A DNA stretch of 55,845 bases. Origin: an uncultured Clostridia bacterium (GTDB taxonomy: Bacteria > Bacillota > Clostridia > Oscillospirales > Acutalibacteraceae). The stretch is from the NCBI GenBank assembly GCA_947572385.1, contig CANPBX010000014.1:1-55845 (forward strand), written 5' to 3'. Shown here piece after piece: positions 26,597-46,641 of the stretch. Both the position numbers and the translations under genes were made by a program. Positions within the stretch are counted from its first letter, which is position 1. The number at the start of each line of letters is the position of its first letter. The notes under the pieces are model-generated. The model worked only from the letters and a program-made list of their open reading frames with translations. It searched no databases and was not told where the DNA came from.

Positions 26597-26625
26597 TTGC
26601 AATCAGATACAAAACAGAGTATAAT
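26597..26625 (+). promoter_or_regulatory. Promoter probably driving the surface-protein locus
   Basis: TTGCAA 26597-26602, 17-base spacer, perfect TATAAT 26620-26625, 24 bases before the signal peptidase gene. Just upstream, TGATCT (26535-26540) and AGATCA (about 26561-26566) form an inverted repeat that could be an operator. I find no comparable promoter in the next 20 kb, so this may serve most of the locus. Confidence 0.7.
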
Positions 26626-26649
26626 ATCTGATAAGAGGGGAGATGAACG

Positions 26650-27297
26650 ATGAACGAGGTGCCACACCAGAACACCACCGGCTTGGAGCCTACGGCGGAC
26701 AAAGCTGTAGATATTGTGGAAGTGAAGCCCACACTTGAGCAGCTGGAGCGTGAGCTTAAGTTCGAGCAGAAGAAGCATTTCTGGACTGGAGTGGCGAGGA
26801 ATACGCTCTTTTTCTTGGCTGTCGTATCTGCGGCGGTTGTTATCCTTGTAGTCTTTTTGTTCCCGGTTGTACAGCTTGAGGGCACGTCTATGGCGCCCAC
26901 GCTGCAAAACGGGGACGTGATAGTTTCAGTCAGTGGGGTGAAGATATCTTCAGGTGATATAATAGCCTTTTACCATAACAATACGATTTTTGTAAAGAGG
27001 GTAGTTGCCGTTGGAGGCGATACGGTCAATATCGACAGCGACGGCATAGTTTATGTTAATGATGTACCTTTGAATGAGCCTTACTTGGAGGAAAAGGCTA
27101 AGGGCAGCTGCGACATACCGTTGCCATACCAGGTACCAATAGACCAGTATTTTGTGTTGGGTGACCACCGCTCTGCTAGCATAGACAGCCGCCATGCTGC
27201 GGTTGGATGTGTGGGAGCGGACATGGTGCTGGGCCGGGTGGCGTGCCGCATATGGCCGCTAAACCGGGCCGGACTGTTTATAGACGAGACAAAATGA
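26650..27297 (+). CDS. lepB: Signal peptidase I (active type), first gene of the surface locus
   Basis: 215-residue type I signal peptidase, cleaving secretory signal peptides at the outer membrane face. An unusual 45-residue acidic cytoplasmic N-terminus precedes one membrane segment (about 51-75). Catalytic Ser80 lies in GTSMAPTLQNGD and Lys116 in FVKRVVAVGGD; GDHRSASIDSR completes the fold. It is closely related in layout to the Ser-less protein at 33042-33623. First gene after the promoter at 26597, 57 bases before the adhesin gene. Confidence 0.94.
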   Translation: MNEVPHQNTTGLEPTADKAVDIVEVKPTLEQLERELKFEQKKHFWTGVARNTLFFLAVVSAAVVILVVFLFPVVQLEGTSMAPTLQNGDVIVSVSGVKISSGDIIAFYHNNTIFVKRVVAVGGDTVNIDSDGIVYVNDVPLNEPYLEEKAKGSCDIPLPYQVPIDQYFVLGDHRSASIDSRHAAVGCVGADMVLGRVACRIWPLNRAGLFIDETK

Positions 27298-27353
27298 TAC
27301 CGATGCAGGCAGGAGGCCTGTTACGGATTTATAGGATATAAGGAGGCAGTATT

Positions 27354-30300
27354 ATGGAATCTCCCAATAGACAGGCAATAAGATTGCTGCGGGAGCAGAG
27401 AAAACGGAAGAAAAGAATAGCGGCGTTTCTATGCATGGCTGGCGTAGTGGTGGTAGGTACTGTGATGGCCCTGCGCATGAGTGGCCGCGCGATGAATAAT
27501 ATGGCGCTGGACTGTGTGCTTACCCACGATCTGCCGCACCAGCATAGTGAGAACTGCTACTACACTCCTCCTGAAGATGGAGCGCAGAAGGTTTTAGTTT
27601 GTGGCACGGCGGACTTTGTGATGCATAAGCATGATGAGGAGAACTGCCATGACAAAGATGGTAATCTGGTCTGCATGCTTCCGGAAATCGAGGAACATAT
27701 ACACACGACAGAGTGCTATCAGAGCCAGCAGGTACTTATCTGTGAGATGCAGGAGGGTGCTGGAGGGCATATCCACTCTGATATGTGTTATGTGACAGAC
27801 TATTCTGCGGAGCCGCTTTGTGGTATCAAGGAAAGTGATGGCCATACTCACGACCAGGAAACCTGCTATGACGAGAGCGGAGGGTTAGTCTGCGAACTTG
27901 AGGAGGCTGCGGCGCATATACATGATGACGGTTGCTATCCAAATAAGCTGGACTGTGGTATGAACGAGGGCGATGGAGCACACACGCACTCGGATGCGTG
28001 CTATAGCACGGAGGACATTCTTGCCTGCGGCAAGAATGATGTTCATCTGCACAGCCACACTGAGGAATGCTATCTGCATACAGTAGACCAGCTTGACGAG
28101 GCACAGGTGCAGGAGCTTTCATCGAAAGGTATAGATGTATCTCAAATAGCTTTTGCCAGCTCGCAGGAAGCCCCGGCAGAAGAAAACCGTGTACAGGCGG
28201 CCGATGGTATGCCTGTGTTGAAGTGCGGTCAGCTGCAGGTATTGGAGCATGTTCACGGCGAGGACTGCTATAGGGCAGTCGGTGTTGAAGGCGATATGCT
28301 GTCTGACTTGGAGAGCAGCGGTGAGGGGGCGGAAATGCCCGGACAGAGGACTGCCACCTATCAGGACGGTACTCTCAGGGCTACGGCAATATATAATGGC
28401 GCAGATCTCCCGGAGAATGCCAGGGTCAATGTGGAACGTGTGGACGAGAATGAAAACCTGCCGGAGAAGCAGGAGCAGTTCGCTGAGCTGATGCAGGATG
28501 AGGAGCTCAAGCTGAGTGCATTGTTAAAGGTCACTGTTTCTGGCATTGACGACATCTCGGTATTGTCTGAGCCGATCAAGCTGACTATTGAGCCTGCGGA
28601 GCAGGGTAAGGTTACAGCTATGGCTTGGTGCGGCAGTGCGGGCGGCACTGAAGCTGAAGGAATTTATGTGCAGAGTGAGAAGGAGATCAGGCTTCTGGAT
28701 GTGGCTGAACAGGATGGCAAAACTGTTGCCGTTGAGGTTTCTCCTGAGGCAGTGGTCGGCTTTGCCGTGCTCCAAAATAAGGAGGACAGTAACGAGAGCA
28801 AGGCTGACGACAACGGAGCTGATGATAACCAGAGCCAGGATACAAACAATACTGAAGTAAAAACTGTACTGAGCATTTCTCAGGACTTCGAGTATGAAGA
28901 TGAAGATTATATGATGGTCTTCCATATAAACGGTATAGCCCGCCCCAAGGAGACAACAGGGCGGCAGGAGGAAACTTCGGAGCCAAGGGAAGATGGAGAA
29001 CAGGCTGGGGAGGAAGTTGAGGACAAAAAAACCACGGAGGATGATCCACAGCCGGATATTGATGCGCTCGATGAAGTGACAGACGAAAATGATACTGAGA
29101 ATGAGCCTTACAATATGAGTGATGAAGAGAGGGCTGACTCAGGAGTCTTCTTCACTGGAAGTGCTGACGAGCCTGAAGCTACGCCAGAGCCTGTCCTGAC
29201 CCCGGAGCCTGTGGCAGAGCCTGAGCCCATAGTTCAGCCTGTATGGACTGATGGGCCGGTGGAGGAAACTGTAACTATCGCCGGAGACGTGCTGCCCGCC
29301 AACGTGTTGGATGACCCGGAGAATCCTCTCGGGCTGATGGTAGAGCAGTTGGGGGAAGATACGCCGGAGTATAATACTTATGCGGATTCTATACACTCTG
29401 ACAACACAGATAACGAACTTCCAGAGCTTAGGGTGGTCTCATATGGCTTGTATTATAAAGGCTCCGAGCTGGACTTAACACAGTGTGCTGTTGAGGTGAA
29501 TGTCACCGCTAAAAAGCGGCTTATTGACGCTGCTGTAGAGCTTGAGGAGGAGCGGAGCTCTGAAGCCGCAGACGAGTCTGGTTCCGTTAAAATTGCTATG
29601 GCTGCGCTTGTATCAGTTGACAGCCAGAAGGCCTCAGCAGAAGAAACTGAAGAAGATGAGATATATTCTATGCCTATAGATGGGGCCTATGAAGTCTCAG
29701 ACTCTGAGGACTCAGAAGCAGATGTCATAGATTTTGTAAAGGAGCAGATAAAAGAGGGCAGCGCGGTTGACGTTGGCTCGGCTGATACAGTGGACGAGGA
29801 CGGCGCCGCAATAAGTGCGGTTATAAAGGACGCAGGCAGTGAGGGCCCGCCGGCGTTCGGTATGACTGTTGTCACGGCAGAAAACCCGAATTTTACTGTG
29901 CAATATTATGCGTGGCTGGATAAGGCGAGGATTGGTGATGCCGGTACGTTGGATATCATTGATACTACTGGCGGAGAACTTCCCCAAAATGGTACAACGC
30001 CAGCAACATCAAAGTTGACCATTGACCCTGATGGAAGTGTAGCCACTGATAAAACGATGATGCAGATCTATACTGATGAGTCGACATCATATTTTAAGAG
30101 GCCAAATCTAGATTATTTTGCGCCGAAGGGCAGTGCTGCCGATAACTATGATATTAAGCAGATATGGGTGCTAAGAGATGAATTCAAGAATAGGTATAGC
30201 GAGGAGAGTTTCAAAAAAATTGTTGATGGCGCTAATGACATAAACATGTATTGGACCACTTACGGTCAGGCCTGTGGTGAGGGTGCAGATGCTTTTACGC

Positions 30301-32060
30301 CAGGAAATATTATGGATGCGAGCCAGTTGAAATTTACTAACCGTCCAGAAACTGCGGAACTGTATCATAATTACTTGTATATTACCTCTAACGATGTTAT
30401 TCGTTTGGTGTATGAGCCCAAAAGAGATGAAACTATTACAGTAGATGCTGATTTCTTTGACTATGATATCAGTGATGGATATGAGGAAACTGATGGAGTA
30501 AAAACAATGAAAGGCACAAAAAGTAATGGCATAAATAGCAAAGATAACTATACAGGAGATGGTAAAAAATATGCGTTCGGCAACGGAAATACAGGTACAG
30601 ATTATGGGGACTTAAAATGGAATGAAAACTATCTAAATAAGGCAAATAAGGAAGGAACTACTGAGAGAAGCTTTAAGGGCTGTACGTTTGGTCTGGTGAA
30701 AGGTTTGGAAGTTCTTAAAGGGGCAACAAGGCCTACGCCAGTGTTTGCAGACGGAGTAAGCGCCCCCAATTTGTTTGGAGAGACAACGGTTAAGGGAAAG
30801 ACAGATTATGAAGGTACGCTGACTTTTAATAAAGTTGGCGACACTCACACGCTTTCTATAGCGTCAGTGGTGAATTTGGGAACAATGGACAAATTAGAAA
30901 TGTTAGGCCACCCTCAACCAAAGTACACAAATATTTGGACTAATAATTTTTGGCCGATGGACAATATCACGGATCCTTCCGGCAAGCAGGACTTCATGTT
31001 TGGAAGCAATAGTTCTAATCAGAAATGGGAGTCTAGCAAAGATGGGAATAAGGGGCAACTTCCTCCCAGCGACGATGGCCGAGACCACAACGCTTACTTC
31101 GGTATGCACTTTGCCATTGAATTTGAGCTAACCGAGGCGTACAGAGGCCCGCTGGAGTATATTTTCTTCGGAGACGATGACATGTGGGTGTTCCTCACGC
31201 CTGTAAACGGTGAGGAGGCGGCATTCGGATACTCTCGGCTTATCTGTGATATCGGCGGCGTGCACTCGTCAGTTGGCGAGATGGTAAATTTGTGGGATTA
31301 TGTAGAAGAAGGAATAGCCCAGAAGTACCGGCTTGATTTCTATTATACTGAAAGAGGCGCGTCCGGCTCTACTTGTTGGATGCAGTATACGCTGCCGTCA
31401 GTGCGCGGGATCGATGGTACGAGAACAGAAGAGGATTACCGCACCCTGTCATTTGGCAAGGAGGTTAAAAAGCAGACCATAGATGGCGGGCTTTCGGATG
31501 AAACTGTTGATTTTGATACTGAAGAAAAGTTCCTTTTCAAGCTCACGCTGAAAGATGAGAACAATGATGAGTTGCGGGATAACTTTAGGTATGAAAAGTA
31601 CGATGAGAAAGGTAATATCGAGAAGCCTAATAATGAGGAAGATGGTTACCTTGACAGCAGAGTGCTGTATGACGGAGCGTATTTTGTTCTTGGGAAGGGT
31701 GAGAGGATAGAGATACAATATCTGCCTGTTGGAACAAAGTATACTATAGAGGAATGCGGCGTGTTTGATAGGGTAGAGGAAAGTGAAGATGGCACCAAGA
31801 TCGAATATATTGTTAAGAAAAAGGATGAACAGAAGTATGACTATATAGTTTCTGCAGACCCGGACGGTGGACGACTGAATGGCAGTGTTTATTCAGGTGA
31901 GATAAACGAAAATCAGACGGCAAATTTGAAGTTCATCAATACCTTTAAAGAGTTCCGTTTACCTGAAACCGGTGGTGTAAGCACATGGGGCTTAACAGGC
32001 GCGGGTGCTGTAATGTTCCTGGCGGCAGGGTGCCTGGTACGGCGCAGGCGCAGGAAATAG
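27354..32060 (+). CDS. Giant LPETG-anchored adhesin / pilus tip protein with HxH-C repeats
   Basis: 1568-residue cell wall protein. In order: very basic N-terminus and one membrane/signal segment (about 10-41); nine HxH...C(Y/H) repeats (62-306); a small beta-rich part (about 350-480); a long acidic, Pro/Glu-rich stretch (about 480-650); further unassigned modules; a fibro-slime/PA14-like domain (about 1240-1355; hallmark FFGDDDMWVF and CDIGGVHSSVGEM); a Cna-B/DUF7601-like domain with a TIEECG E-box-like strand; then LPETG (31959-31973), a membrane span and RRRRRK. GGAGG precedes ATG 27354. Bases 29.9-31.0 kb are more AT-rich than the rest. I infer a pilus tip or ancillary adhesin for a sortase in this locus. 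Confidence 0.9.
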   Translation: MESPNRQAIRLLREQRKRKKRIAAFLCMAGVVVVGTVMALRMSGRAMNNMALDCVLTHDLPHQHSENCYYTPPEDGAQKVLVCGTADFVMHKHDEENCHDKDGNLVCMLPEIEEHIHTTECYQSQQVLICEMQEGAGGHIHSDMCYVTDYSAEPLCGIKESDGHTHDQETCYDESGGLVCELEEAAAHIHDDGCYPNKLDCGMNEGDGAHTHSDACYSTEDILACGKNDVHLHSHTEECYLHTVDQLDEAQVQELSSKGIDVSQIAFASSQEAPAEENRVQAADGMPVLKCGQLQVLEHVHGEDCYRAVGVEGDMLSDLESSGEGAEMPGQRTATYQDGTLRATAIYNGADLPENARVNVERVDENENLPEKQEQFAELMQDEELKLSALLKVTVSGIDDISVLSEPIKLTIEPAEQGKVTAMAWCGSAGGTEAEGIYVQSEKEIRLLDVAEQDGKTVAVEVSPEAVVGFAVLQNKEDSNESKADDNGADDNQSQDTNNTEVKTVLSISQDFEYEDEDYMMVFHINGIARPKETTGRQEETSEPREDGEQAGEEVEDKKTTEDDPQPDIDALDEVTDENDTENEPYNMSDEERADSGVFFTGSADEPEATPEPVLTPEPVAEPEPIVQPVWTDGPVEETVTIAGDVLPANVLDDPENPLGLMVEQLGEDTPEYNTYADSIHSDNTDNELPELRVVSYGLYYKGSELDLTQCAVEVNVTAKKRLIDAAVELEEERSSEAADESGSVKIAMAALVSVDSQKASAEETEEDEIYSMPIDGAYEVSDSEDSEADVIDFVKEQIKEGSAVDVGSADTVDEDGAAISAVIKDAGSEGPPAFGMTVVTAENPNFTVQYYAWLDKARIGDAGTLDIIDTTGGELPQNGTTPATSKLTIDPDGSVATDKTMMQIYTDESTSYFKRPNLDYFAPKGSAADNYDIKQIWVLRDEFKNRYSEESFKKIVDGANDINMYWTTYGQACGEGADAFTPGNIMDASQLKFTNRPETAELYHNYLYITSNDVIRLVYEPKRDETITVDADFFDYDISDGYEETDGVKTMKGTKSNGINSKDNYTGDGKKYAFGNGNTGTDYGDLKWNENYLNKANKEGTTERSFKGCTFGLVKGLEVLKGATRPTPVFADGVSAPNLFGETTVKGKTDYEGTLTFNKVGDTHTLSIASVVNLGTMDKLEMLGHPQPKYTNIWTNNFWPMDNITDPSGKQDFMFGSNSSNQKWESSKDGNKGQLPPSDDGRDHNAYFGMHFAIEFELTEAYRGPLEYIFFGDDDMWVFLTPVNGEEAAFGYSRLICDIGGVHSSVGEMVNLWDYVEEGIAQKYRLDFYYTERGASGSTCWMQYTLPSVRGIDGTRTEEDYRTLSFGKEVKKQTIDGGLSDETVDFDTEEKFLFKLTLKDENNDELRDNFRYEKYDEKGNIEKPNNEEDGYLDSRVLYDGAYFVLGKGERIEIQYLPVGTKYTIEECGVFDRVEESEDGTKIEYIVKKKDEQKYDYIVSADPDGGRLNGSVYSGEINENQTANLKFINTFKEFRLPETGGVSTWGLTGAGAVMFLAAGCLVRRRRRK
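27537..28271 (+). repeat. Nine HxH-x(2-4)-C(Y/H) repeats in the adhesin
   Basis: Protein repeat: each unit of about 20-35 residues has HxH, two to four residues, Cys-Tyr (or Cys-His), and in most units another Cys 6-11 residues on (for example HKHDEENCHDKDGNLVC, HTHDQETCYDESGGLVC). Units start near residues 62, 91, 125, 139, 164, 188, 210, 233 and 299. The spacing of His and Cys suggests metal binding, which is inference. Confidence 0.85.
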
Positions 32061-32094
32061 ACAAACACAGAGATAACGGAAAGGGGGTGGCTTG

Positions 32095-33030
32095 TTGACA
32101 GATAAAGAACTCCACAAACTTGGGCGCAGGGAGCTTTTACAGCTTATGCTTGCGCAGGGCAGGGAAGCCGAAAAGGCAAAGCAGGAACTGACCGAGGTTC
32201 AGGACAAACTGCAGCAGCTTGAGGAGAGCTATGAGCGGCTGAAACGCCGTCTTGACGACAAGGATACGCAGATACATAAGCTGCGCGCCGCCTTGCAGTC
32301 TGCTCAAGGCGGCGCAGTGAGGGCTGACGGAGCAGGGGCTGCGGTAGCTGCAGTGCCGGTCCCTGATGATTACTATGCCCCTCCGCCGCCAGTACAGCAG
32401 CAGCCAACGGCTCCAGCTCCACGCGCTGCACCCCCGGCAGCCCAGATCCCTCCTGTACAGCAGCCTGTCAGGACTGCGCCGCAGCCTCAGCCACGGCATG
32501 GGGACGCGGGATATACCGGCGGCCATGCGGCGGGGGAGGCGTCGGTTACCGGAAGGCATACACGCAGGGAACAGGAATACTACGATTATCTGTTTGGGCC
32601 AGTGCAGAACCAGGGCCCTCAGGCCCAGCAGCCAAAGAGGGAGCGTCCAAGGCCCCAGGCACCGCCGCAGACTTACCGACAGCCGCAGGCCTACAGAGAG
32701 CCCCCTCCCCCTTACCGGGAGCCTCAGCACTTTAGAGAGCAGCCGCCGATGCCTGCGGGCCAGTGGGACCAGCCGCAGTATATGAAGGAGCAGCCTCACG
32801 CCTACTATAACGAGCCGCAGTATAGATACGCGGCCTATGCAAGGGAGCAGCAGCCGCCTGTCCCGGCCGTACCGGAGCCATCGTACCCGGCGTACCCGCC
32901 GCAGAGCCCGGATGAATTTATCCCGGCCCCAGAGGTCCCGCCGGAGAACAGTATGCAGATGCTCAATGCCGTAGAGATAGTCGATGGCAGGCCGGTGTCC
33001 CAGAGCCAGGTGCTGCGGCCCAAGCGCTGA
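32095..33030 (+). CDS. Coiled-coil, proline-rich protein of the pilus locus, unknown function
   Basis: About 311 residues, no signal peptide or membrane segment. Residues 1-70 are a charged coiled coil (RRELLQLMLAQGREAEKAKQ... LEESYERLKRRLDDKDTQIH); residues 85-290 are very rich in Pro, Gln, Tyr and Ala (repeated YREP/QP patches). Starts with TTG, either 32092 or 32095; I prefer 32095 for the 7-8 base distance from AGGGGGTGG. It sits between the adhesin and the Ser-less peptidase-like gene, so it is likely a cytoplasmic accessory of surface-protein assembly, but I do not recognise its function. Confidence 0.75.
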   Translation: MTDKELHKLGRRELLQLMLAQGREAEKAKQELTEVQDKLQQLEESYERLKRRLDDKDTQIHKLRAALQSAQGGAVRADGAGAAVAAVPVPDDYYAPPPPVQQQPTAPAPRAAPPAAQIPPVQQPVRTAPQPQPRHGDAGYTGGHAAGEASVTGRHTRREQEYYDYLFGPVQNQGPQAQQPKRERPRPQAPPQTYRQPQAYREPPPPYREPQHFREQPPMPAGQWDQPQYMKEQPHAYYNEPQYRYAAYAREQQPPVPAVPEPSYPAYPPQSPDEFIPAPEVPPENSMQMLNAVEIVDGRPVSQSQVLRPKR

Positions 33031-33041
33031 CAGGAGTGCTG

Positions 33042-33623
33042 ATGAAAAGCAAGGAGCTTGAGTTACCGACTGTTGAGCAGATCGAGGCTGAACTAAAGAA
33101 AGAGAACAACAGGAAAGAGTACAACCGGGTGTTGAGAAGCACGGTATTTGTGCTGCTGGTGGTGACAGCCGCGGCGGTCATAGTGGCGGTCCTTATGTTT
33201 CCGGTGCTGGAGATAAAAGGCGACGCCATGAACACGACGCTCCAAAACGGCGACTTTGTGGTAACAGGCAAGGCTAAGGAGTACCAGCGTGGAGACATCG
33301 TTGCCTTTTACTACAACAATACCCTGCTTGTGAAGCGCATTATCGCCAAGGGCGGGGACGAGGTCGATATTGATGAGGACGGAAATGTTACCGTGAACGG
33401 CCAGGCCATTTCAGAGCCATACGCAGCCGAGAAGACCCTTGGCGAATCTAATGTGACATTTCCATACAGTGTACCTCAGGATGAATTTTTTGTACTGGGT
33501 GATAACCGCGCCCAGTCCGTGGACAGCCGAAACACGGCCCTGGGCGCGGTAACACAAGACCTGATAGTCGGCAAGCTGCTATTCCGCGTTTGGCCTATTA
33601 CGGCTATTGGCGGTGTGAAGTGA
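33042..33623 (+). CDS. Signal peptidase I-like protein lacking the catalytic serine
   Basis: 193 residues, same layout as the enzyme at 26650-27297: acidic N-terminus, membrane segment (about 31-54), peptidase fold ending GDNRAQSVDSRN...RVWPI. The motif that should read GxSMxPTL reads GDAMNTTLQNGD: Ala62 (GCC, 33225-33227) replaces the catalytic Ser, while Lys98 (LLVKRIIAKGGD) is kept. The gene is otherwise intact, with CAGGAG before ATG 33042 and directly upstream of the pilin gene. Streptococcal pilus loci encode catalytically dead SipA/LepA-type proteins needed for pilus assembly; this is probably an independent analogue acting as a chaperone, not a protease. Confidence 0.9.
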   Translation: MKSKELELPTVEQIEAELKKENNRKEYNRVLRSTVFVLLVVTAAAVIVAVLMFPVLEIKGDAMNTTLQNGDFVVTGKAKEYQRGDIVAFYYNNTLLVKRIIAKGGDEVDIDEDGNVTVNGQAISEPYAAEKTLGESNVTFPYSVPQDEFFVLGDNRAQSVDSRNTALGAVTQDLIVGKLLFRVWPITAIGGVK

Positions 33624-35441: not shown

Positions 35442-35480
35442 ATACCCGCTGCTAACCGGCGGCGGGTATCCCCTTCGGGG
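35442..35480 (+). promoter_or_regulatory. Tandem hairpins between pilin and sortase genes
   Basis: ATACCCGC (35442-35449) pairs with GCGGGTAT (35462-35469); directly after it CCCC-TTC-GGGG (35470-35480) forms a second tight hairpin. No T run follows, so this is more likely an RNA processing/stability or attenuation element that lowers sortase expression relative to pilin than a full terminator. Confidence 0.6.
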
Positions 35481-35505
35481 GACATCAGTAAGGAGAGCCT
35501 TGTTT

Positions 35506-39507: not shown

Positions 39508-40517
39508 TGATGAAGCTGCTTAAACGGCTGCTTGGAGTGAGTCTTGCGTTTGGGCTGGTCCTGGCAATGGCATTCCCCCAAACTGCACAGGCGTACACGT
39601 ATACTGTGCGGATATACGCCGGACAGCAGGGAACTATAGTTAGCGGTAATGGGAAGATCACGGGCCAGGGGGAAGCACTGGTTTTTGAGGGGCTTTCTTA
39701 TAATGACCGTATCGATTTTCACAACAATATGGTCTCCCTGAAAGATGGGAGTAAGTATTATATCAAGGGTATCCGTCAGAGCGGCAAGGGTACTGAGGAG
39801 ATATCTGAGACCGGTAACAGTAAGCGTACCGCCTCATTTACAGTTACAAAGGACCAGGACTTTGTGGTGGCATATGGCGTGCTGACGGAGCCGGTACAGT
39901 ATACCATCAGATACCACAACGCCGCAGGTCAGGAATTGGCCCCAAGTGAAACTTACTATGGCAATGTGGGCGACAGACCGGTTATTGCATACCAGTATAT
40001 CGAAGGATATCAGCCGCAGGCTTATAACCTGACAAAGACTCTCTCCGCTGACCCTGGGGAGAACGTGTTTACATTTATATATACGCCACTGCCAAGAGAT
40101 ACGATCTATACCGGTACCACTACGACCGTGGTTTCTGAGGCAGGGCCGTCAGGGACTACGCCGCCGGCCTCAAGCGAGGATAGCGAGGATACTGACTCTA
40201 CAGCCTCTCAGCAGCCAGAAGAAGATATTTCTGATAACAGTGTCCCAGTAGCGGAGCCTACCCCTGGAGCTACTGGATTTCCAAGCAGGCCGCCTTTGAA
40301 TGAGTGGGACCTTGACAACGGCGACGTACCTCTTGCGGATTTTGATGAATTGGGCCTTGGCAGCGAGGAACAAAGTGAGCTGTCATCAGATGGGCAGATA
40401 TTTTGGAACAACATCCCATTAGCGGCAAAGATAGCGGGCGGTGTGGTTATGCTAGGAGGCTTCTCTGTGGCGCTATGGTTCCTGATCTTCCGCAGGATAA
40501 GGAAGGAAGACAGATGA
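39507..40517 (+). CDS. MucBP-domain membrane-anchored surface protein
   Basis: 336 residues. Signal 1-30; an N-terminal domain that appears to contain a repeat-type fold (YTVRIYAGQQGTIVSGNGK); a MucBP-like domain about residues 130-200 (YTIRYHNAAGQELAPSETYY and GDRPVIAYQYIEGYQ); a Thr/Ser/Glu/Pro-rich stalk (about 205-290); then a C-terminal membrane span (about 307-329) and RRIRKEDR. No sorting motif. MucBP domains can bind mucin-type ligands, which would fit a gut organism. ATG 39507 or 39510. Confidence 0.8.
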   Translation: MMKLLKRLLGVSLAFGLVLAMAFPQTAQAYTYTVRIYAGQQGTIVSGNGKITGQGEALVFEGLSYNDRIDFHNNMVSLKDGSKYYIKGIRQSGKGTEEISETGNSKRTASFTVTKDQDFVVAYGVLTEPVQYTIRYHNAAGQELAPSETYYGNVGDRPVIAYQYIEGYQPQAYNLTKTLSADPGENVFTFIYTPLPRDTIYTGTTTTVVSEAGPSGTTPPASSEDSEDTDSTASQQPEEDISDNSVPVAEPTPGATGFPSRPPLNEWDLDNGDVPLADFDELGLGSEEQSELSSDGQIFWNNIPLAAKIAGGVVMLGGFSVALWFLIFRRIRKEDR

Positions 40518-41035
40518 GAAGGTTAGCTGCGGCGTTATGCAATATCCTTGGCGTGATTATATTGCTGGCGGTTATTGGCGTGAGCTTGTTGCTGACAGTG
40601 CCTAAACTTTTTGGATACGAAATGTACAATGTGGTTAGTGGCAGCATGGAGCCGGAGATACCAGTAGGCAGCCTTATCGTTGTTGGCGCTGTTCAGCCGG
40701 AGAACATCAGCGAGGGTGATATTATTGCCTTTGAGAGCGGCGAGTCTGTGGTGACTCATCGGGTAGTGCAGAATAAAAAGCTTGAAGGCGAGTTTATCAC
40801 TAAGGGTGATGCCAACGAGAAAGAGGATATCAACCCAGTACCATATCAGGGACTTATAGGCCGGGTCGAGAAGCATATCCCATATATGGGACAATACATG
40901 CTGATTTTTACTACAGGTGTTGGCAAGGTATATATGCTATGCTTCGCTGCGTGTGGGGCAATGCTGAATATTTTGGCTGGCAGGATAAGGAGCCGTGCCA
41001 ATGAGAACGAGGATGATATTTTATCACCGGTATAG
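40514..41035 (+). CDS. sipW: SipW-type signal peptidase
   Basis: 173-residue peptidase of the archaeal/ER type found in Bacillus as SipW, which processes TasA-like matrix proteins. Membrane segments about 9-28 and 135-155. Catalytic Ser44 in SGSMEPEIPVGS and His82 in THRVV (His instead of Lys is the SipW hallmark); GDANEKED (98-105) completes the active site. ATG 40514 overlaps the previous stop (ATGA); the upstream open frame is not used. Its likely substrates are encoded at 37456-39507. Confidence 0.93.
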   Translation: MRRLAAALCNILGVIILLAVIGVSLLLTVPKLFGYEMYNVVSGSMEPEIPVGSLIVVGAVQPENISEGDIIAFESGESVVTHRVVQNKKLEGEFITKGDANEKEDINPVPYQGLIGRVEKHIPYMGQYMLIFTTGVGKVYMLCFAACGAMLNILAGRIRSRANENEDDILSPV

Positions 41036-41069: not shown

Positions 41070-41861
41070 ATGGGAAAGAAAGTCAGACTTATCATAATGG
41101 CCGCGGCTCTGCTGGTGTTTTTGGGTTCCGGTGGGGCGGTACTGGTTATCCAGGGGAACTATCGGGCCAGCAGGCAGGGATATACTGATGCCGCGACAGA
41201 GTATACCCGGAAGCAGGAAAATAGCAGCAGGACAAATAGTTCTGTAAGTGCAGCCATGGGGGAAACTTCAGAAGAGGTGTTAGAGCAACCTCCTATAACT
41301 GTGGACTTTGAGCGGCTACGGGCTGATAACCCACAAGTAGCAGCTTGGCTCTATTGTGAAGATACGGCTATAGATTATCCGGTTATGCAGGGAAGTGACA
41401 ATGAATTCTACCTGCACCACTCATATACTGGCGCGGAGGACCAGAGCGGCGCAATTTTTGTGGACGCTCAGTGTACTCCGGGCTTTGCTGATTACAATTC
41501 TATTATCTATGGCCACAGCATGAAGGACGGCTCTATGTTTGGGGGGCTGGAGTCTTGGAAGAGCCAGGAGTATTATGAAGAGCACCCGGTTATGTGGCTG
41601 CTGACGCCTGAAGCAAATTACAGGATAAAGCTTTTTAGCGGCTATACCACCTCGGCATATTCGGAGACATATACTATCTTCCGAGGGCCAGGTGAGGATC
41701 TTGCAGCCTACATAGCTGAGAGTCAGATAAACTCTGATTTCACCCCGATTGAAATTAATGAGGCAGACGGAAGGTATGTTGTGCTTTCCACCTGTGCTTA
41801 TGATTTTGATGAGGCCAGATATGTTTTGCACGGCAGGCTGGAACAAGTGGATATGCAATAG
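41070..41861 (+). CDS. srtB: Class B sortase
   Basis: 263-residue sortase: N-terminal membrane segment (about 6-28), Ser/Thr/Glu linker, class B core with NPQVAAWLYCEDTAIDYPVM (about 87-106), catalytic His149 (IIYGHSMKDGSMF), Cys242 (VLSTCAYDF) and Arg250. Class B sortases anchor a few dedicated substrates. The only noncanonical sorting signal in the locus is on the protein at 38770-39507. Second sortase of the locus, different in class from the pilus polymerase. Confidence 0.93.
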   Translation: MGKKVRLIIMAAALLVFLGSGGAVLVIQGNYRASRQGYTDAATEYTRKQENSSRTNSSVSAAMGETSEEVLEQPPITVDFERLRADNPQVAAWLYCEDTAIDYPVMQGSDNEFYLHHSYTGAEDQSGAIFVDAQCTPGFADYNSIIYGHSMKDGSMFGGLESWKSQEYYEEHPVMWLLTPEANYRIKLFSGYTTSAYSETYTIFRGPGEDLAAYIAESQINSDFTPIEINEADGRYVVLSTCAYDFDEARYVLHGRLEQVDMQ

Positions 41862-41874
41862 GGAGGGCGGCGTC

Positions 41875-42867
41875 ATGGCACGTAAATTAAAGCTATGGTC
41901 CACCCTGTTTCTGCTATTATGTCTTGGCGGCTGTATACAGGGTCATACGGATATTCCGCTGGAGGAAGTGTCGCAGCCACCTTCTTCAAACTCAAGCAAG
42001 GTGGCTGCTTCAATGCCAGAGGCTGAAAAAACCCCCGCTGCAGCTCCGAGCGATTTTGCGCCATACCAGGCTCCTGAATTCGCCAGGGCAGATTTTGATC
42101 CCAGCGCTGCCGAGGGTGGGAATGGGGTAAGGGTAGATCTGTCAGGCTTGAGCAGGGGATATGTAGCAGTGACGGCAAACAGTGACAGGCGCATGAAGTT
42201 CCGAGTTGAAATGGGTGAGAAGGTATATAACTATGACCTTCCGTCGGATGGTACTCCAACCATATATCCGTTGCAAAGCGGGGATGGGAGCTATGTTTTC
42301 CGGGCGCTGGCGAACACTGCTGGGACAAACTATGCTGAGATATACTCCACACAGGCCGAAGTTCAGCTTGATGACGAGTTTCAACCGTTCCTTCGCCCCA
42401 GCCAGTATGTGGATTATAGCGAAGGCTCTCGCTGTGTCAAGCTTGCGGCGGAGCTGGCTTCTCAGCAGCCGGACGCCCTTGGGGTAGTGGAGGCGGTGTT
42501 CGACTATATCTGCGAACACGTGACTTATGATAAAGAAAAAGCTGCCACAGTTAATAAGGGGTATCTGCCACAGCCGGATGAGACGCTCACTTCCGGTAAA
42601 GGCATCTGTTTTGACTACGCCTGCTTGGTGGCAGCCATGTTACGCAGCCAGGGGATACCTACCAAGATGGTCTTTGGCTATGTGCAGCCGGGAGATTTAT
42701 ACCACGCCTGGAATATGTTCTATACAGATGAGAGCGGATGGGTGACAGTGGAATATGAGGTGGAGTCAAATAGCTGGAGCCGCCTTGACATGACTTTTGC
42801 TGCCAACGGTGCTGATCCTCAGTTTATAGGGGATGGCACTAACTATACAGACGTATATTTTTACTGA
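41875..42867 (+). CDS. Transglutaminase-like lipoprotein
   Basis: 330-residue lipoprotein: signal ending at LGGC (Cys20), Ser/Pro/Ala linker to about 65, a beta domain (about 80-165) and a transglutaminase/papain-like core. Putative triad Cys245 (GKGICFDYACLV), His277 (LYHAWNMFY) and Asp305 (WSRLDMTF). Bacterial members can be crosslinking enzymes or proteases. Outside the membrane and next to pilin genes, it could crosslink or trim surface subunits; no direct evidence. ATG 41875 with GGGAGG upstream. Confidence 0.85.
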   Translation: MARKLKLWSTLFLLLCLGGCIQGHTDIPLEEVSQPPSSNSSKVAASMPEAEKTPAAAPSDFAPYQAPEFARADFDPSAAEGGNGVRVDLSGLSRGYVAVTANSDRRMKFRVEMGEKVYNYDLPSDGTPTIYPLQSGDGSYVFRALANTAGTNYAEIYSTQAEVQLDDEFQPFLRPSQYVDYSEGSRCVKLAAELASQQPDALGVVEAVFDYICEHVTYDKEKAATVNKGYLPQPDETLTSGKGICFDYACLVAAMLRSQGIPTKMVFGYVQPGDLYHAWNMFYTDESGWVTVEYEVESNSWSRLDMTFAANGADPQFIGDGTNYTDVYFY

Positions 42868-42881
42868 AGGCGGGTGTGGAT

Positions 42882-43934
42882 ATGGAGAAAAGTAGAGGGC
42901 AGAGGTTGGACGCGCTGGGGGTCAGCGCTTTTTGTGAGAGCATGGCGATGATGATCCAGTCGGGGATACAGCCCGACGAGGCTGTTGCACTGTTAAGGCA
43001 GAGTGAAGGAAAAGGCGGTGCATTGGAAGACGCTCTTGCGGCTATGCAGGCAGAGCTGGACCTGGGCCATGGGCTGGCTGAAGCAATGAAGACCTGTGGA
43101 GCGTTTCCTGACTATGCGGTGAATATGATAGCAGCCGGGGAGGAATCCGGCCGCCTGGAGGCGGTGCTATTCCGTTTGAGCAAATATTATCTCAACGAGG
43201 AGACCATGGGGGATAAGCTGCGCAACGCTATTACCTATCCAGCTGTAATGCTGACGATGATAATTGCGGTGCTGGCGCTTATGCTCGCTATGGTGCTGCC
43301 AGCCTTTACACAGGTATATGAGAGGGTGACAGGCAGCCTTGCTGTGTCTTCTTACGGATACATAAGCTGGGCCTACGGATTCTGCTGGATAGCCCTTGGG
43401 GCTATGCTGCTGCTGGCGATGGTACTGGTGGTAGGCAGGCTGATGTGGAAAAGCAGGCATAGGGCAGCACTTGAAAATCTCCTGCAGAAGCTGCCGCTCT
43501 GTGGGGATATCCTGAGGGAGCTGGGGCTATACCGCTTTATGGGCGCGTTTGTGACTTACCTGTCCAGCGGAGCTGTACAGGATGTTGCCATGGAGGAGAG
43601 TATAAAGATGGCAGGATGCAGGCCTGTGGAGGAGAAGCTCCTGCGGTGCATGGCACATTTGCGGGCAGGGCACAGCTTTGCCCATGCAGCATATGACGAA
43701 GGACTGTTCGAGCCGGTTTATGGGAGAATACTGCTGGCAGGAGAGCGCAGCGGAAGAACTGAGACAGTGCTCTGGAGGCTCACTGACCTGCTGGAGGAGC
43801 ACTGCACCACCCTGACAGACCGGCTGGTTGGAATTGTAGATCCCTTGCTCTCAGGGGTGCTGCTGCTGACGGTAGGAGTTTCCCTGCTGAGCGTTATGCT
43901 TCCGCTGTTGGGCATAATGAATTCCATCGGTTAG
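42882..43934 (+). CDS. PilC/GspF-type inner-membrane platform protein
   Basis: 350-residue type II secretion/type IV pilus platform protein with two homologous T2SSF domains. Each has the family signature: GEESGRLEAVLFRLSKYY (about 89-106) and AGERSGRTETVLWRL (about 287-301). Membrane segments about 118-140, 155-186 and 323-346. Slightly short for the family (about 400). ATG 42882; GTG 42876 is in frame. Partner of the PilT-type ATPase at 45583-46641. Confidence 0.9.
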   Translation: MEKSRGQRLDALGVSAFCESMAMMIQSGIQPDEAVALLRQSEGKGGALEDALAAMQAELDLGHGLAEAMKTCGAFPDYAVNMIAAGEESGRLEAVLFRLSKYYLNEETMGDKLRNAITYPAVMLTMIIAVLALMLAMVLPAFTQVYERVTGSLAVSSYGYISWAYGFCWIALGAMLLLAMVLVVGRLMWKSRHRAALENLLQKLPLCGDILRELGLYRFMGAFVTYLSSGAVQDVAMEESIKMAGCRPVEEKLLRCMAHLRAGHSFAHAAYDEGLFEPVYGRILLAGERSGRTETVLWRLTDLLEEHCTTLTDRLVGIVDPLLSGVLLLTVGVSLLSVMLPLLGIMNSIG

Positions 43935-43938
43935 GGGA

Positions 43939-44283
43939 ATGGGTATGTATATAGATAAAAGGCGCAGAAAGCGCTGGCCGGTATTTTTATCCGCTATATT
44001 AACGGCTGGCTTGATTGTCTATGGATTTTGGCTTATTGCCGGAGGCTCCGGGAGGAACATGGAGACAGATGGGGCCAGGGCGCTGCGAGCGGCTATACAA
44101 AGCGCCGCGATGCAATGTTATGTTGTAGAGGGCATGTATCCGTCGGGACTCGTCTATCTTGAGGAAAACTATGGATTGCAAATAAACAGTGATGATTATT
44201 ATGTGACCTATGAAGTATTTGCGTCCAATCTGCCGCCGGATGTGACAGTGGATAGCAAGCCAAGGCAGGGGGGATCATTTTGA
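43939..44283 (+). CDS. Small membrane-anchored protein of the type IV pilus-like module
   Basis: 114 residues: basic N-terminus (KRRRKRW), one membrane segment (about 14-34), then ALRAAIQSAAMQCYVVEGMY, PSGLVYLEENYGL and NSDDYYVTYEVFASNLPPDV. The layout (N-terminal hydrophobic helix plus small globular part with YP-containing EGMYPSGL) is pseudopilin-like, but there is no clear prepilin cleavage site. Four bases overlap the next gene. I do not know its exact family. Confidence 0.7.
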   Translation: MGMYIDKRRRKRWPVFLSAILTAGLIVYGFWLIAGGSGRNMETDGARALRAAIQSAAMQCYVVEGMYPSGLVYLEENYGLQINSDDYYVTYEVFASNLPPDVTVDSKPRQGGSF

Positions 44284-44750
44284 AGCATAGATATCTTCCG
44301 GTCATGCTTTTTACCCTGGCGGTAGAGGCACTGTTTTTGATAGCGTTTTTATTTCTCACAATATTCGGTGCGGGGATATACCGGGAAACTGTAGAAGTAC
44401 AGGCGGCAAATGGGCAGGACCGCCTGCTGCTCAGCTATTTTTCCACACGTGCTAAAAGTGCCGACACCAAGGATGCTGTCACACTTTATGACGATGATAT
44501 CGGGCAGGTACTGAGCTTCGCGGATCCTGTTAGCGGCTATGCGGTACGGGTGTATCAGAAGGATGGAAAGCTGTTGGAGGACTATGCTCTGGCGGGTTCA
44601 CCACTGGTACCTGGCAGCGCGGCTGTAATCGGCAGTACGGAGGTTTTTAAGGTCAAAAGAGATGGAAAGCGCACATTCGTAGTTACTACGGATGTGGGCA
44701 CTGTGACCTTTACCTTAAAGTCGGGGGCAGAGTATGAAGGACAGACGTAG
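44280..44750 (+). CDS. DUF4860-like membrane-anchored protein (minor-pilin-like)
   Basis: 156 residues, TTG start after AGGGGGG, overlapping the previous stop. One membrane segment (about 8-31), then LLLSYFSTRAKSADTKDAVT and a beta-rich part ending in VGTVTFTLKSG. It resembles DUF4860 proteins, which in Clostridia accompany PilC/PilT. No prepilin peptidase motif is evident. Overlaps the next gene by 17 bases. Confidence 0.7.
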   Translation: MKHRYLPVMLFTLAVEALFLIAFLFLTIFGAGIYRETVEVQAANGQDRLLLSYFSTRAKSADTKDAVTLYDDDIGQVLSFADPVSGYAVRVYQKDGKLLEDYALAGSPLVPGSAAVIGSTEVFKVKRDGKRTFVVTTDVGTVTFTLKSGAEYEGQT

Positions 44751-45159
44751 AACTACAGCATTTTATATGGAGATGATATTGCTGGTGGCAGTGCTCACCG
44801 GCGTTGTTTTAGTGCTGGCAGACGTGTTTACGACTGCAAAGGAACAGAGCTCCCAGGCGAAAACACTGACTACAGCTGTGCGCTTAGCAGAGAACGCAGC
44901 TGAGATAGTGGCTGGCACTCAGGACCGCAGCGAGATTGTAGACATGCTGGGAGGCGGCGATAGTGCAGCCTGTCATTTGGAGATGCAGAAGATATTGGCC
45001 AGGTTTAACAACAGTATGGATCCTGACCCGGATGGGGGGTACTGTGTTGAAATCACATGGATTGACTATAACGGACTTATAAGCTATAATATTAGTGTGG
45101 CATGGCAGGAGGACAGCGAGCAGATCTATAACCTGAAAACAGCTGTCTTTTATGGATAA
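44734..45159 (+). CDS. Pseudopilin-like membrane-anchored protein
   Basis: 141 residues. Basic N-terminus then AFYMEMILLVAVLTGVVLVL, with a Glu close to the position of Glu5 of type IV pilins, followed by a helical stretch (SSQAKTLTTAVRLAENAAEI) and a small C-terminal part containing one Cys pair (about 74 and 99). This is the most pilin-like of the four small proteins, but the Gly/Ala before the cleavage point is not at the standard place. Confidence 0.65.
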   Translation: MKDRRRTTAFYMEMILLVAVLTGVVLVLADVFTTAKEQSSQAKTLTTAVRLAENAAEIVAGTQDRSEIVDMLGGGDSAACHLEMQKILARFNNSMDPDPDGGYCVEITWIDYNGLISYNISVAWQEDSEQIYNLKTAVFYG

Positions 45160-45170
45160 GGAGGGGCTTG

Positions 45171-45560
45171 ATGAGACAGGTATCGGTACGCCTTGGTCCA
45201 TTGGCGCTTTTGTTGACTGTAATAGTTATATGTATGACTGTGCTTGGACTGCTGGCTGTTACAACCGCCAGGGGTGATTTGAGCATGGCGAGGCGGTATG
45301 CTGACTCAATAGAGAAAAGGTATGGGCTTGAGGCACAAGGACAGGCTTTTTTGCAGCAGATCGTCCAGGAACCTGAAATATGGGATGAACTGGAGAGGGA
45401 CAAAGACGACATAGGTTGGAAGATCCTGACAGATGAGGGGTTGAGCCTGCATATTGGGATAGCTCGCAACAGAGATAAGTATGAGATAGTGAACTGGCAG
45501 TTTGTCCAGGAGAGCTGGGAGCCTCAAGAGGAGATCGGCGGACTGTGGAGCGGCGAGTAA
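45171..45560 (+). CDS. Small membrane-anchored protein of the type IV pilus-like module
   Basis: 129 residues, ATG 45171 (TTG 45168 also possible) after AAGGAGGGG. One membrane segment (about 8-32: LGPLALLLTVIVICMTVLGL), a charged helix (ARRYADSIEKRYGLEAQGQA) and a short polar C-terminus. No known family recognised. Lies directly before pilT with 22 bases between. Confidence 0.65.
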   Translation: MRQVSVRLGPLALLLTVIVICMTVLGLLAVTTARGDLSMARRYADSIEKRYGLEAQGQAFLQQIVQEPEIWDELERDKDDIGWKILTDEGLSLHIGIARNRDKYEIVNWQFVQESWEPQEEIGGLWSGE

Positions 45561-45582
45561 CTAAAGGAGAGGGGTCAATAGA

Positions 45583-46641
45583 ATGGATATTCAGGATGTT
45601 TTAGTGCAGGCAATGGAGTGGAGCGCGTCGGACATTTTTCTGGTGGCGGGCCTGCCTGTTACCCTTAAGTGTAAAGGACATCAGCAGAGGGTAGGGGAGG
45701 GTATTCTTATGCCGGAGCATACCCAGGCGCTGATAAATCAGATATACCGTTTCAGCGGGCGGGAGCAGACTAGGCTCGCCCAGGGCAAAGACGACGACTT
45801 TTCCTTCGCGGTGCGTGGTATGGGAAGGTTTCGGGTGAATGTGTTCAGGCAGCGCGGCTCCATGGCTGCAGTGATCAGGCTTATAAGATTTGGTCTGCCA
45901 GACCCTGAGCAGCTAAATATACCCGAAGAGGTCCTGTCGCTTACAGAGAATCAAAAGGGAATGGTCCTTGTGACTGGAGCAGTGGGCACAGGAAAATCCA
46001 CCACATTAGCGTGTATGATACATAGGATCAATCAGAGCAGGGACTGTCATATCATCACAATGGAGGACCCGATAGAGTACGTCCACCGCCACGAAAAGGC
46101 CATTGTGACTCAGCGTGAGATATCAATTGATACATCTGGATATCCCGATGCCCTGCGCTCAGCTTTGCGGGAGAGCCCTGATGTAATTCTGCTGGGTGAA
46201 ATGCGGGACTACGATACTATTTCCGCGGCTATAACCGCTACAGAGACAGGATTGCTGATGTTCAGCACCCTGCATACCGGCAGCGTTGCCAATACCATAA
46301 CAAGAATAATTGACGTTTTTCCCGCAAGCCAACAGCAGCAGGTCAAGATACAGCTGTCACAGCTTCTAAGGGGTGTGGTCTGCCAGCAACTAGTGCCAGG
46401 GGTTGACGGAAGGCTTATACCTGTGTTCGAGATAATGAAGTCAAATAACGCTGTGCAGAACATGATACGTGAGGATAAGCTGCACCAGCTGGATTCGGTA
46501 ATGATGTCCGGTGCAAAGGAAGGTATGCGCACTATGGACGGCAGTCTGCTCCAGCTATATAAGCAGGGAAAAATTGCAAAGGAGACCGCCCTTGTATACT
46601 GTGCTAACTACGAGCTTATGTCCAAAAGGCTTGAAGTTTAG
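45583..46641 (+). CDS. pilT: PilT-type (retraction) ATPase of a type IV pilus-like system
   Basis: 352-residue hexameric secretion ATPase of the PilT family (usual about 345-370). N-terminal PAS-like domain (SASDIFLVAGLPVTLKCKG); Walker A TGAVGTGKST (131-140); Asp box MEDPIEY; Walker B SPDVILLGEMRD (198-209) with the GEMRD typical of PilT rather than PilB; His box STLHTGS. No zinc-binding tetracysteine of PilB is present. It is the only ATPase of the module, so here it may power assembly as well, or the system may be a retraction-only device. AAAGGAGAGGGG upstream. Confidence 0.93.
   Translation: MDIQDVLVQAMEWSASDIFLVAGLPVTLKCKGHQQRVGEGILMPEHTQALINQIYRFSGREQTRLAQGKDDDFSFAVRGMGRFRVNVFRQRGSMAAVIRLIRFGLPDPEQLNIPEEVLSLTENQKGMVLVTGAVGTGKSTTLACMIHRINQSRDCHIITMEDPIEYVHRHEKAIVTQREISIDTSGYPDALRSALRESPDVILLGEMRDYDTISAAITATETGLLMFSTLHTGSVANTITRIIDVFPASQQQQVKIQLSQLLRGVVCQQLVPGVDGRLIPVFEIMKSNNAVQNMIREDKLHQLDSVMMSGAKEGMRTMDGSLLQLYKQGKIAKETALVYCANYELMSKRLEV

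What the first reader, a model, noticed from the sequence alone, without database searches (positions are those of the whole stretch)
26597..46641. A 20-kb one-strand locus joining a sortase pilus, a TasA/SipW-type system and a PilT/PilC module
Eighteen genes run without a strand change and mostly overlap or lie within 60 bases of each other. They encode three signal peptidase-type proteins (one inactive), two sortases of different class, an LPSTG pilin, an LPETG giant adhesin, three TasA/camelysin-like proteins, a MucBP protein, a transglutaminase lipoprotein, and PilC, four small anchored proteins and PilT. Each part is known alone; I know of no described system that unites them. The tight spacing suggests one regulated surface organelle or matrix, perhaps with PilT giving movement or secretion energy to sortase- or SipW-dependent fibres. 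This is the best candidate for a new system here.
Basis: partly seen in the sequence, partly recalled or inferred. Interest (0 to 1): 0.88.

Follow-up and report, generated by a model that had tools for sequence, protein, structure and literature searches.

The report
Surface-fibre operon with stripped-down pilus motor
A gut bacterium carries in one 20-gene block the parts for two kinds of surface fibre and, fused to them, a widespread machine built on a pilus-retraction motor for which the usual assembly motor and processing enzyme were not found.

Summary
In detail: 20 genes (reader: 18) run on one strand from 26,650 to 46,641; 18 of 19 junctions are 56 bases or less. Comparison shows two units. 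Unit A (signal peptidases, LPXTG pilin, class C sortase, TasA-like proteins, SipW) is rare: its TasA2 is in 13 of 148 relatives. Unit B is a seven-gene set, transglutaminase-PilC-P1-P2-P3-P4-PilT, all seven in order in 87 of 109 loci; its P1 marks 44 of 391 sampled genomes of the class. Its PilTs form one clade among retraction ATPases with invariant catalytic residues. Yet in the window's genome PilT is the only strong ATPase of its kind and no prepilin peptidase is found; the same holds in a single-contig relative. P3 keeps the pilin Glu5 (104 of 107) but mostly lacks the cleavage-site glycine (15 of 107). Two of four components said to occur in every type IV filament system are thus not found. 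A and B are fused in 12 genomes of the window's genus, and apparently in a second family, but each also occurs alone.

The parts
26597..26625 (+). promoter-like site TTGCAA-17-TATAAT before the first gene
   Evidence: 10 of 12 matches; not above chance as a class
26650..27297 (+). signal peptidase I with Ser (GTSM) and Lys (VKR)
27354..32060 (+). 1568-residue LPETG-anchored adhesin with fibro-slime-like and DUF7601 domains
32092..33030 (+). coiled-coil, proline-rich protein (ProCoil)
   Evidence: found in 5 of 11 block loci of relatives (L048, L051-L054)
33036..33623 (+). signal peptidase-like protein with Ala for the catalytic Ser
   Evidence: under purifying selection
33673..35388 (+). major pilin, isopeptide domain D2, SpaA domain, LPSTG anchor
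35442..35480 (+). hairpin without U-tract (35442-35469) and a second small hairpin (35470-35480) between pilin and class C sortase; the first is kept in most relatives with A-U/C-G exchange in the stem
   Evidence: (z -2.86 for the interval)
35500..36375 (+). class C sortase
   Evidence: 259.8 bits, cut-off 160
36397..37440 (+). secreted DUF5979 protein without LPXTG, possible tip or ancillary subunit (Tip)
   Evidence: role inferred
37456..37959 (+). TasA/BsaA-like 1
   Evidence: E=2.2e-7, below curated cut-off
37956..38756 (+). TasA/BsaA-like 2
   Evidence: E=6.5e-6, below cut-off
38770..39507 (+). TasA-like 3 with C-terminal V(K/R)TGD-TM-basic tail, likely sortase signal
39507..40517 (+). 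weak MucBP protein with C-terminal TM
   Evidence: below cut-off
40514..41035 (+). SipW/archaeal-type signal peptidase, Ser (SGSM) and His (VTHR) present
41070..41861 (+). class B sortase
41875..42867 (+). transglutaminase-like lipoprotein, first gene of unit B
   Evidence: Cys, His and Asp each in 92 of 93 relatives, the other cut by the fetch
42876..43934 (+). PilC/GspF platform protein, the only T2SSF gene found in the genome
43939..44283 (+). P1, small TM protein, possibly GspG-like (CYxxEGxYP)
   Evidence: GspG likeness by eye
44280..44750 (+). P2, DUF4860
44734..45159 (+). P3, pilin-like TM with Glu at +5, Thr at -1
45168..45560 (+). P4, TM protein with near-invariant Gly before the TM
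45583..46641 (+). PilT retraction-type ATPase, the only strong T2SSE ATPase found in the genome
46658..48546 (+). TauE/SafE exporter and a diaminopentanoate dehydrogenase-like gene, following by 16 and 74 bases; possibly on the same transcript in this strain, not part of the conserved unit
48584..48611 (+). terminator-like hairpin with short T-rich tail after the last of these genes

Best explanation
The locus is a fusion of two units. Unit A builds surface fibres: class C sortase polymerises the LPSTG pilin (with the LPETG adhesin), SipW releases TasA-like subunits that form a second fibre, and class B sortase probably anchors TasA3 through its V(K/R)TGD tail. Unit B (transglutaminase-PilC-P1-P2-P3-P4-PilT) is a type IV-filament-derived envelope machine reduced to platform, retraction-type motor and four membrane-anchored, at least partly pilin-like proteins. 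Most likely PilT hydrolyses ATP and turns PilC, which moves a short complex of unprocessed P1-P4 in the membrane; this complex presents or works the transglutaminase-like enzyme, which cuts or cross-links proteins at the wall. In this lineage unit B was placed behind unit A so that the enzyme can act on the fibres or on their anchors. Shown: gene content, order, conservation, single PilT clade, intact motor and enzyme residues, and that in many carriers no second strong ATPase and no recognisable prepilin peptidase is found. Inferred: all steps of unit A's assembly (by family), rotation, a P1-P4 complex, the enzyme's substrate, the reason for the fusion.
For: Seven in order in 87 of 109 loci, six (PilC to PilT) in 102 of 109, many of the rest cut by contig ends; pairwise distances of the seven proteins correlate at 0.78-0.94, as shared ancestry would give. 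PilT clade 67 rows (one a duplicate genome), support 100/99, on the PilT side; Walker A Gly/Lys, Walker B Glu and HIS-box His invariant in 104 rows. Own genome: one strong T2SSE, no A24 match, one T2SSF gene, two sortases over cut-off, both here. P3 Glu5 in 104 of 107; its profile's PDB hits are 6 named pilins of 8, weak, best E=0.026; hhalign 90.1% to prepilins against at most 41% for 11 controls. Transglutaminase triad 92 of 93 each. All 20 genes under purifying selection against G018, dN/dS 0.016-0.325. Fusion in 12 genomes of one genus and, across two contigs, in G627.
Against: P2 and P4 are not closer to canonical prepilins than controls are (7.4% and 11.3%) and P1 only moderately (73.4% against at most 47.9%); P2-P3 (91%) and P3-P4 (86%) exceed the controls (at most 70%) modestly, while P1 is not close to P2, P3 or P4 (41-57%). 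P3 is not more positive before than after its TM in about half (54 of 109). P1 and P3 match no pilin family in Pfam over cut-off. No model of any P protein could be made. A24 is found in 14 of 18 genomes that I picked among the 80 loci, and all 14 have at least one further strong T2SSE ATPase; A24 is also in 4 of 32 DUF4860-positive relatives. Processing and extension in trans are possible there. Nothing ties the enzyme to the fibres beyond gene order. G101 (given as 100% complete) has PilC and P1-P4 with no T2SSE match, so PilT is not always needed.
Confidence: 0.45

Rival explanations
1. One reading: PilT and PilC give force to the sortase or SipW fibres themselves (movement, secretion or retraction), as one organelle.
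For: Fusion and order kept in 12 genomes of the genus and, across two contigs, in G627, while outer flanks differ; no other strong ATPase or platform of this kind found in the genome.
Against: Sortase pili are covalent polymers not known to retract (general knowledge). Of 80 loci of unit B kept from many species only the two of Neglectibacter type carry TasA2 and the pilin (flanks of at most 10 kb), and unit A occurs in G029 without PilT.
Confidence: 0.12
2. Two independent surface systems that merely share a promoter or regulon in this lineage.
For: Both units occur apart.
Against: The joint unit keeps its ends and order in six different upstream settings (window type, L173, L174, L175, L176, L178; judged by eye beyond the window's own genes) and appears again in a second family.
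Confidence: 0.3
3. Unit B is a real retractable type IV pilus whose pilins are processed by an unrecognised peptidase and whose PilT drives both extension and retraction.
For: P3 pilin likeness; P4 keeps a Gly before the TM in 102 of 106; a single motor driving extension and retraction is reported for CpaF (PMC11300603, title and start of abstract in the listing).
Against: No Gly at -1 in 92 of 107 P3; no A24 over cut-off in 28 of 32 DUF4860-positive relatives.
Confidence: 0.2
4. Unit B is a decayed type IV pilus with no function.
For: Two core components are not found.
Against: Strong purifying selection (PilT dN/dS 0.016), invariant catalytic residues, order kept across many genera.
Confidence: 0.03

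Closest known systems
Com pilus (ComGA-ComGG with ComC) of monoderm bacteria
   Same: Reduced type IV filament system: one platform, one ATPase, several small pilins
   Different: Com keeps the extension ATPase and a prepilin peptidase and arose with loss of PilT (PMC10191384, passages); unit B keeps PilT, the other two are not found, and it carries a transglutaminase
Type IVa pili of Clostridia (pil operons with pilB, pilC, pilD; PMC3244431, passages)
   Same: PilT and PilC homologous; unit B PilTs nest on the PilT side of the tree
   Different: No PilB or PilD at the locus; neither found in the genome (at E below 1e-20 and over cut-off) in 25 of 32 DUF4860-positive relatives
Streptococcus pyogenes pilus islands with SipA, some with a class B sortase
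   Same: Sortase pilus genes with a signal peptidase-like protein lacking catalytic residues (PMC4049620, passages); a class B sortase in pilus assembly (PMC3019223, listing only)
   Different: Here Ser only is lost and Lys kept; TasA/SipW genes and unit B are added
Clostridium perfringens sipW-bsaA operon
   Same: SipW with BsaA, which forms polymers, and a neighbouring srtB (PMC7395162, passages)
   Different: There SrtB was not needed for BsaA polymers; the passages read describe no class C sortase pilin or PilT module in the operon
Bacillus TasA-SipW-TapA and B. cereus TasA/CalY/CapP
   Same: SipW-processed fibre subunits
   Different: The B. cereus assembly is described as sortase-independent (PMC13082335, passages); here TasA3 carries a sortase-like tail

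Membership tests
Type IV filament superfamily (unit B) | Platform protein (PilC/GspF) | tested here: met
   PF00482 E=1e-36
Type IV filament superfamily (unit B) | Extension ATPase (PilB type) | tested here: not met
   Only strong T2SSE in own genome is PilT, which falls with PilT and not PilB; 25 of 28 A24-free carriers have only the module ATPase below 1e-20 (read by hand; 12 best candidates per genome scored). Whether PilT can extend is not tested
Type IV filament superfamily (unit B) | Prepilin peptidase | tested here: not met
   No PF01478 match in own genome; control genomes ring in 12 of 14. An unknown enzyme is not excluded; many other carriers have an A24 elsewhere
Type IV filament superfamily (unit B) | Pilins with class III signal peptide (Gly at -1, Glu at +5) | tested here: not met
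   P3: Glu 104 of 107, Gly 15 of 107; P4: Gly 102 of 106, no Glu at +5; P1 and P2 show neither by eye
Type IV filament superfamily (unit B) | Pilin fold | tested here: inconclusive
Type IVa pilus | PilM, PilN, PilO assembly complex | not tested
   No such match among the locus proteins; genome not searched
Sortase-assembled pilus (unit A) | Class C sortase next to LPXTG major pilin with isopeptide domain | tested here: met
Sortase-assembled pilus (unit A) | Pilin-motif lysine and E-box | not tested
   motifs recalled, not searched
TasA/SipW matrix fibre (unit A) | SipW-type peptidase with Ser/His | tested here: met
   for the window; by exact pattern SGSM in 10 and VTHR in 7 of 12 genomes, the rest not looked at
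TasA/SipW matrix fibre (unit A) | TasA/BsaA-family subunit | tested here: inconclusive
   TasA1 and TasA2 below curated cut-off, TasA3 none; no PDB relative for TasA2 and TasA3
SipA-like inactive signal peptidase | Catalytic Ser lost | tested here: met
   Ala in window, L051, L052, L054; Thr in L053; Ser in L048, L055, L056
SipA-like inactive signal peptidase | Catalytic Lys lost | tested here: not met
   VKR kept

The most novel reading that the evidence does not exclude
Unit B is a distinct class of type IV-filament machine that works with a retraction-type ATPase alone and with unprocessed pilin-like proteins, coupled to a surface transglutaminase; it is spread through the Clostridia, and in the window's lineage it was built into a sortase/TasA fibre operon as a fibre-working motor.
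Probability: 0.35. Interest if true: 0.92.

Novelty: new variant of a known kind. Interest (0 to 1): 0.74.

Why it matters
A review states that four proteins (pilin, prepilin peptidase, extension ATPase, platform) are found in every type IV filament system (PMC10191384, passages). A conserved operon that keeps the platform and only a retraction-type motor, in genomes without a recognisable prepilin peptidase, would show that the core can be cut further than thought and makes a question directly testable: what can PilT and PilC do without PilB and PilD? The invariant transglutaminase beside it hints at an enzyme worked by a motor at the cell surface. The operon is found in about one in nine sampled genomes of the class (44 of 391), and the P2 family is still labelled a domain of unknown function.

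Tried and rejected
A decayed pilus was considered and set aside because of purifying selection and invariant catalytic residues. The upstream LytTR regulator, GHKL kinase and receiver gene were considered as part of the unit and rejected: kinase and LytTR sit there in the near relatives L171 and L172 (the receiver gene recognised only in L172) but not in L173, L174, L175 or L178; in L176 only a weak receiver match lies further off. A wide tie between class B sortase and unit B was looked at: a match to this class B sortase lies in 9 of 80 fetched loci, two of which are the fused block itself; it was not tested against a background rate and is not claimed. P1 searched in Pfam and PDB gave nothing useful, P3 nothing in Pfam. 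TasA2 and TasA3 gave no PDB relative. Rfam found nothing at 24-50 kb. My first transglutaminase seed was in the wrong frame, so its 'TGase' rows there are void; it was redone. Simple greedy gene calls sometimes chose antisense frames, so absences were rechecked with all frames or tblastn. Counts and 61 included two duplicate genomes (L067 = L056, L068 = L057); one search recounts without them, (104 rows) and the tree still hold duplicates. Literature: no paper in the held library has PilT, PilC, sortase and transglutaminase together, none names DUF4860, none has type IV pil-, transglutaminase, PilT and Clostridi- together; the 12 papers listed of 14 are unrelated by title. One review (PMC5817068) has SipW, LPXTG, class C sortase and pilin together and was not read. 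Most subscription papers are not held, so this does not prove the operon undescribed.
Full report
What is there. The 20 genes from 26,650 to 46,641 are all on the + strand. Starts were revised for pilin (33,673), SipW (40,514) and transglutaminase (41,875). The 19 junctions run from -17 to +56 bases except 111 bases between pilin and class C sortase. In the window's own genome (84 contigs, 95% complete) the two sortases over cut-off are the two here (two partial hits lie below cut-off), the only T2SSF gene is this PilC, the only strong T2SSE ATPase is this PilT (the other hit is 24.6 bits, 25.4 with its neighbours, in a 775-residue frame), and no A24 peptidase is found.

Two units. DUF4860 (P2) occurs in 32 of 148 relatives (one of them, G101, below the family's cut-off), 15 of them among the 29 genomes of the window's genus, own included. 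Oriented loci show PilC-P1-P2-P3-P4 in all 31 examined (30 relatives and the window) and PilT in 30. The transglutaminase lies before PilC in 22 of the 31 and after PilT in one more; three of the eight without it are cut by contig ends. Twelve of the 15 same-genus loci carry the sortase/TasA/SipW block fused upstream; G004, G005 and G026 do not. The coiled-coil gene is found in 5 of the 11 relatives, and in L055 and L056 one signal peptidase precedes the adhesin with none after it; in L049, L050 and L057 contig ends cut the 5' part. TasA2 is found in 13 of 148 genomes: those 12 and G029. In G029 the set runs signal peptidase, pilin, class C sortase, Tip, TasA1-3, MucBP, SipW, with no match to the adhesin, class B sortase, transglutaminase or PilC in the 20 kb fetched and none to PilT in the genome. 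Outside the block the genes differ: upstream, the near relatives L171 and L172 resemble the window while L173, L174, L175, L176 and L178 do not (L177 gave no clear genes); that these five differ from each other is by eye. Downstream, the window's TauE gene is seen in L051 and L054 only. Hence a unit with sharp ends.

A second family. A profile of TasA2 finds 8 of 345 genomes of the order. Four are strong: three of the genus (own included) and G627 of another family; four weaker partial matches were not followed up. G627 has adhesin, signal peptidase, pilin, class C sortase, Tip, TasA1-3, MucBP, SipW, class B sortase and the transglutaminase up to residue 284, where the contig ends. Another contig ends with residues 286-330 of the transglutaminase, then PilC, P1-P4 and PilT at 72% identity. 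G627 also has other PilT-like genes.

Their titles include Gemmiger formicilis, Fournierella massiliensis, Lacrimispora xylanisolvens, Clostridium aminobutyricum, Oscillibacter sp. PC13, Hungatella and Lachnospiraceae assemblies, single assemblies titled Actinomycetota and Paenibacillaceae, and Neglectibacter sp. X58, whose contig has the length of the G011 contig and identical proteins, so the window is probably a Neglectibacter (inference). Over 109 loci (80 plus 31, less two duplicate genomes) all seven genes are in order in 87 and the six from PilC to PilT in 102; many exceptions are at contig ends, and L059 and L141 have the transglutaminase after PilT. In a sample of the class 44 of 391 genomes carry P1. 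Distances among the seven proteins correlate at 0.78-0.94 in 88 loci; shared descent alone would give this, and no outside control was run.

A motor without its partners. The PilTs of unit B form one clade (67 rows, one a duplicate, of 104; support 100/99, all bootstrap trees) nested among clostridial type IVa PilTs and apart from PilB (90 rows in all, midpoint root for drawing; the tool flags one long PilB branch, and the nearest sister of the clade is not settled, 95/42). Walker A Gly and Lys, Walker B Glu and HIS-box His are invariant in 104 rows; the AIRNLIRE-like motif is kept with variation. Of the 32 DUF4860-positive relatives 4 have A24 over the cut-off (G034, G053, G068, G093; searches compared by hand; G001 has a match below cut-off). 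Of the other 28, 25 have the module PilT as the only T2SSE match below 1e-20 (G002 also has a fragment at 5.8e-15); G050 has a second ATPase, G139 (60% complete) has PilB-like matches, and G101 has none (there only the 12 best candidates per genome were scored). G022 and G082 are listed with one contig. Against this, among 18 genomes that I picked from the 80 loci, mostly named strains, 14 have A24, and all 14 have at least one further strong T2SSE ATPase. The 4 without (Neglectibacter sp. X58, the same genome as G011, Oscillibacter sp. PC13, Yanshouia hominis and a Hungatella-titled assembly) have only the module PilT as a strong match. So unit B does not depend on a recognisable prepilin peptidase, but sharing one is possible where one exists.

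Are P1-P4 pilins? By hydropathy each has one TM segment in nearly all loci (110 of 111, 110 of 110, 109 of 109, 107 of 108). P3 has Glu at the pilin +5 place in 104 of 107 and Gly at -1 in 15 of 107 (automatic alignment); the -1 residue shows no link to A24 in the 20 loci that I looked at. The P3 profile finds in the PDB 8 weak hits, 6 of them named pilins, best E=0.026. Against 10 canonical prepilins from other loci hhalign gives P3 90.1%, P1 73.4%, P4 11.3%, P2 7.4%; among themselves P2-P3 91.2%, P3-P4 85.9%, P1-P4 57.4%, P2-P4 50.9%, P1-P2 47.7%, P1-P3 41.1%. Eleven control families, most of them shallower, reach at most 41% for P3, 48% for P1 and 70% for P2 and P4. So P3 is pilin-like, P1 perhaps, P2 and P4 by association only.

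The enzyme and other details. The transglutaminase triad is kept in 92 of 93 sequences at each place, the other being cut by the fetched end; the lipobox Cys aligns in 71 of 93. Nearest solved structures are a putative cysteine protease (3isr, 9.9e-6) and a microbial transglutaminase (6g49), so the reaction is open. In other genera a BTAD regulator adjoins or lies near the operon in 13 clustered loci; of four scanned all have BTAD and one (L120) a GGDEF match over cut-off. The second signal peptidase lacks Ser in the window, L051, L052, L053 and L054, while the signal peptidase found in L048, L055 and L056 keeps it, a precedent being SipA of S. pyogenes. TasA3 ends in V(K/R)TGD or a near form, a TM and a basic tail, TGD in 12 of 12. 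A hairpin without U-tract lies between pilin and class C sortase and is kept with stem exchanges in the nine sequences compared; L051 is identical to the window, and L046 and L048 were left out because no clear counterpart was seen. It fits unequal expression within one transcript rather than a stop (inference). All 20 genes are under purifying selection against G018 (dN/dS 0.016 for PilT to 0.325 for pilin); against G022 synonymous distance was saturated for 8 of 20 and the other 12 gave 0.031-0.174.

Judgement. It is lineage-specific, and its parts can live apart. The deeper novelty is unit B, a widespread operon that keeps the platform and retraction motor of a type IV pilus while neither extension motor nor recognisable prepilin peptidase is found in many carriers, coupled to a surface enzyme. 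Its function is not shown.

Noticed in passing
window 33750-35263: The mature pilin region looks swapped: L051 matches the window at about 95% on both sides but gives no match here, while the more distant L052 aligns throughout at 75%; signal peptide and LPSTG anchor are kept. Suggests cassette exchange of a surface antigen.
   Followed up: partly
window 42413-42440, - strand: A perfect 12 of 12 sigma-70-like promoter on the antisense strand inside the transglutaminase gene.
   Followed up: no
L058 (G101): PilC and P1-P4 with no PilT nearby and no T2SSE match in a genome given as 100% complete: perhaps a natural loss of the motor.
   Followed up: no
own genome G000: No sortase over the family cut-off besides the class C and class B ones of this locus; two partial hits lie below cut-off. 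A housekeeping sortase may be absent.
   Followed up: no
L035, L036, L037, L120 and others: BTAD transcription factors, some with GGDEF-like C-terminal domains, adjoin unit B in other genera, hinting at a link to cyclic-di-GMP control.
   Followed up: partly
L037 (G079), reverse-complement coordinates 7581-9486 and 19226-20000: A SipW-like gene and a weak TasA1-like gene lie a few kb from unit B on the opposite strand, and a class B-like sortase follows PilT, in a genome of another genus.
   Followed up: no
window 53995-55212: A phage-type integrase gene near the window's end.
   Followed up: no
L091-L145 (Lachnospiraceae-type loci): Unit B sits in a fixed housekeeping setting (cysteinyl-tRNA synthetase and an rRNA-methyltransferase-like gene upstream in 17 loci, a lactate/malate-dehydrogenase-like gene near by in 14, names by eye), as expected of old vertical inheritance.
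   Followed up: partly
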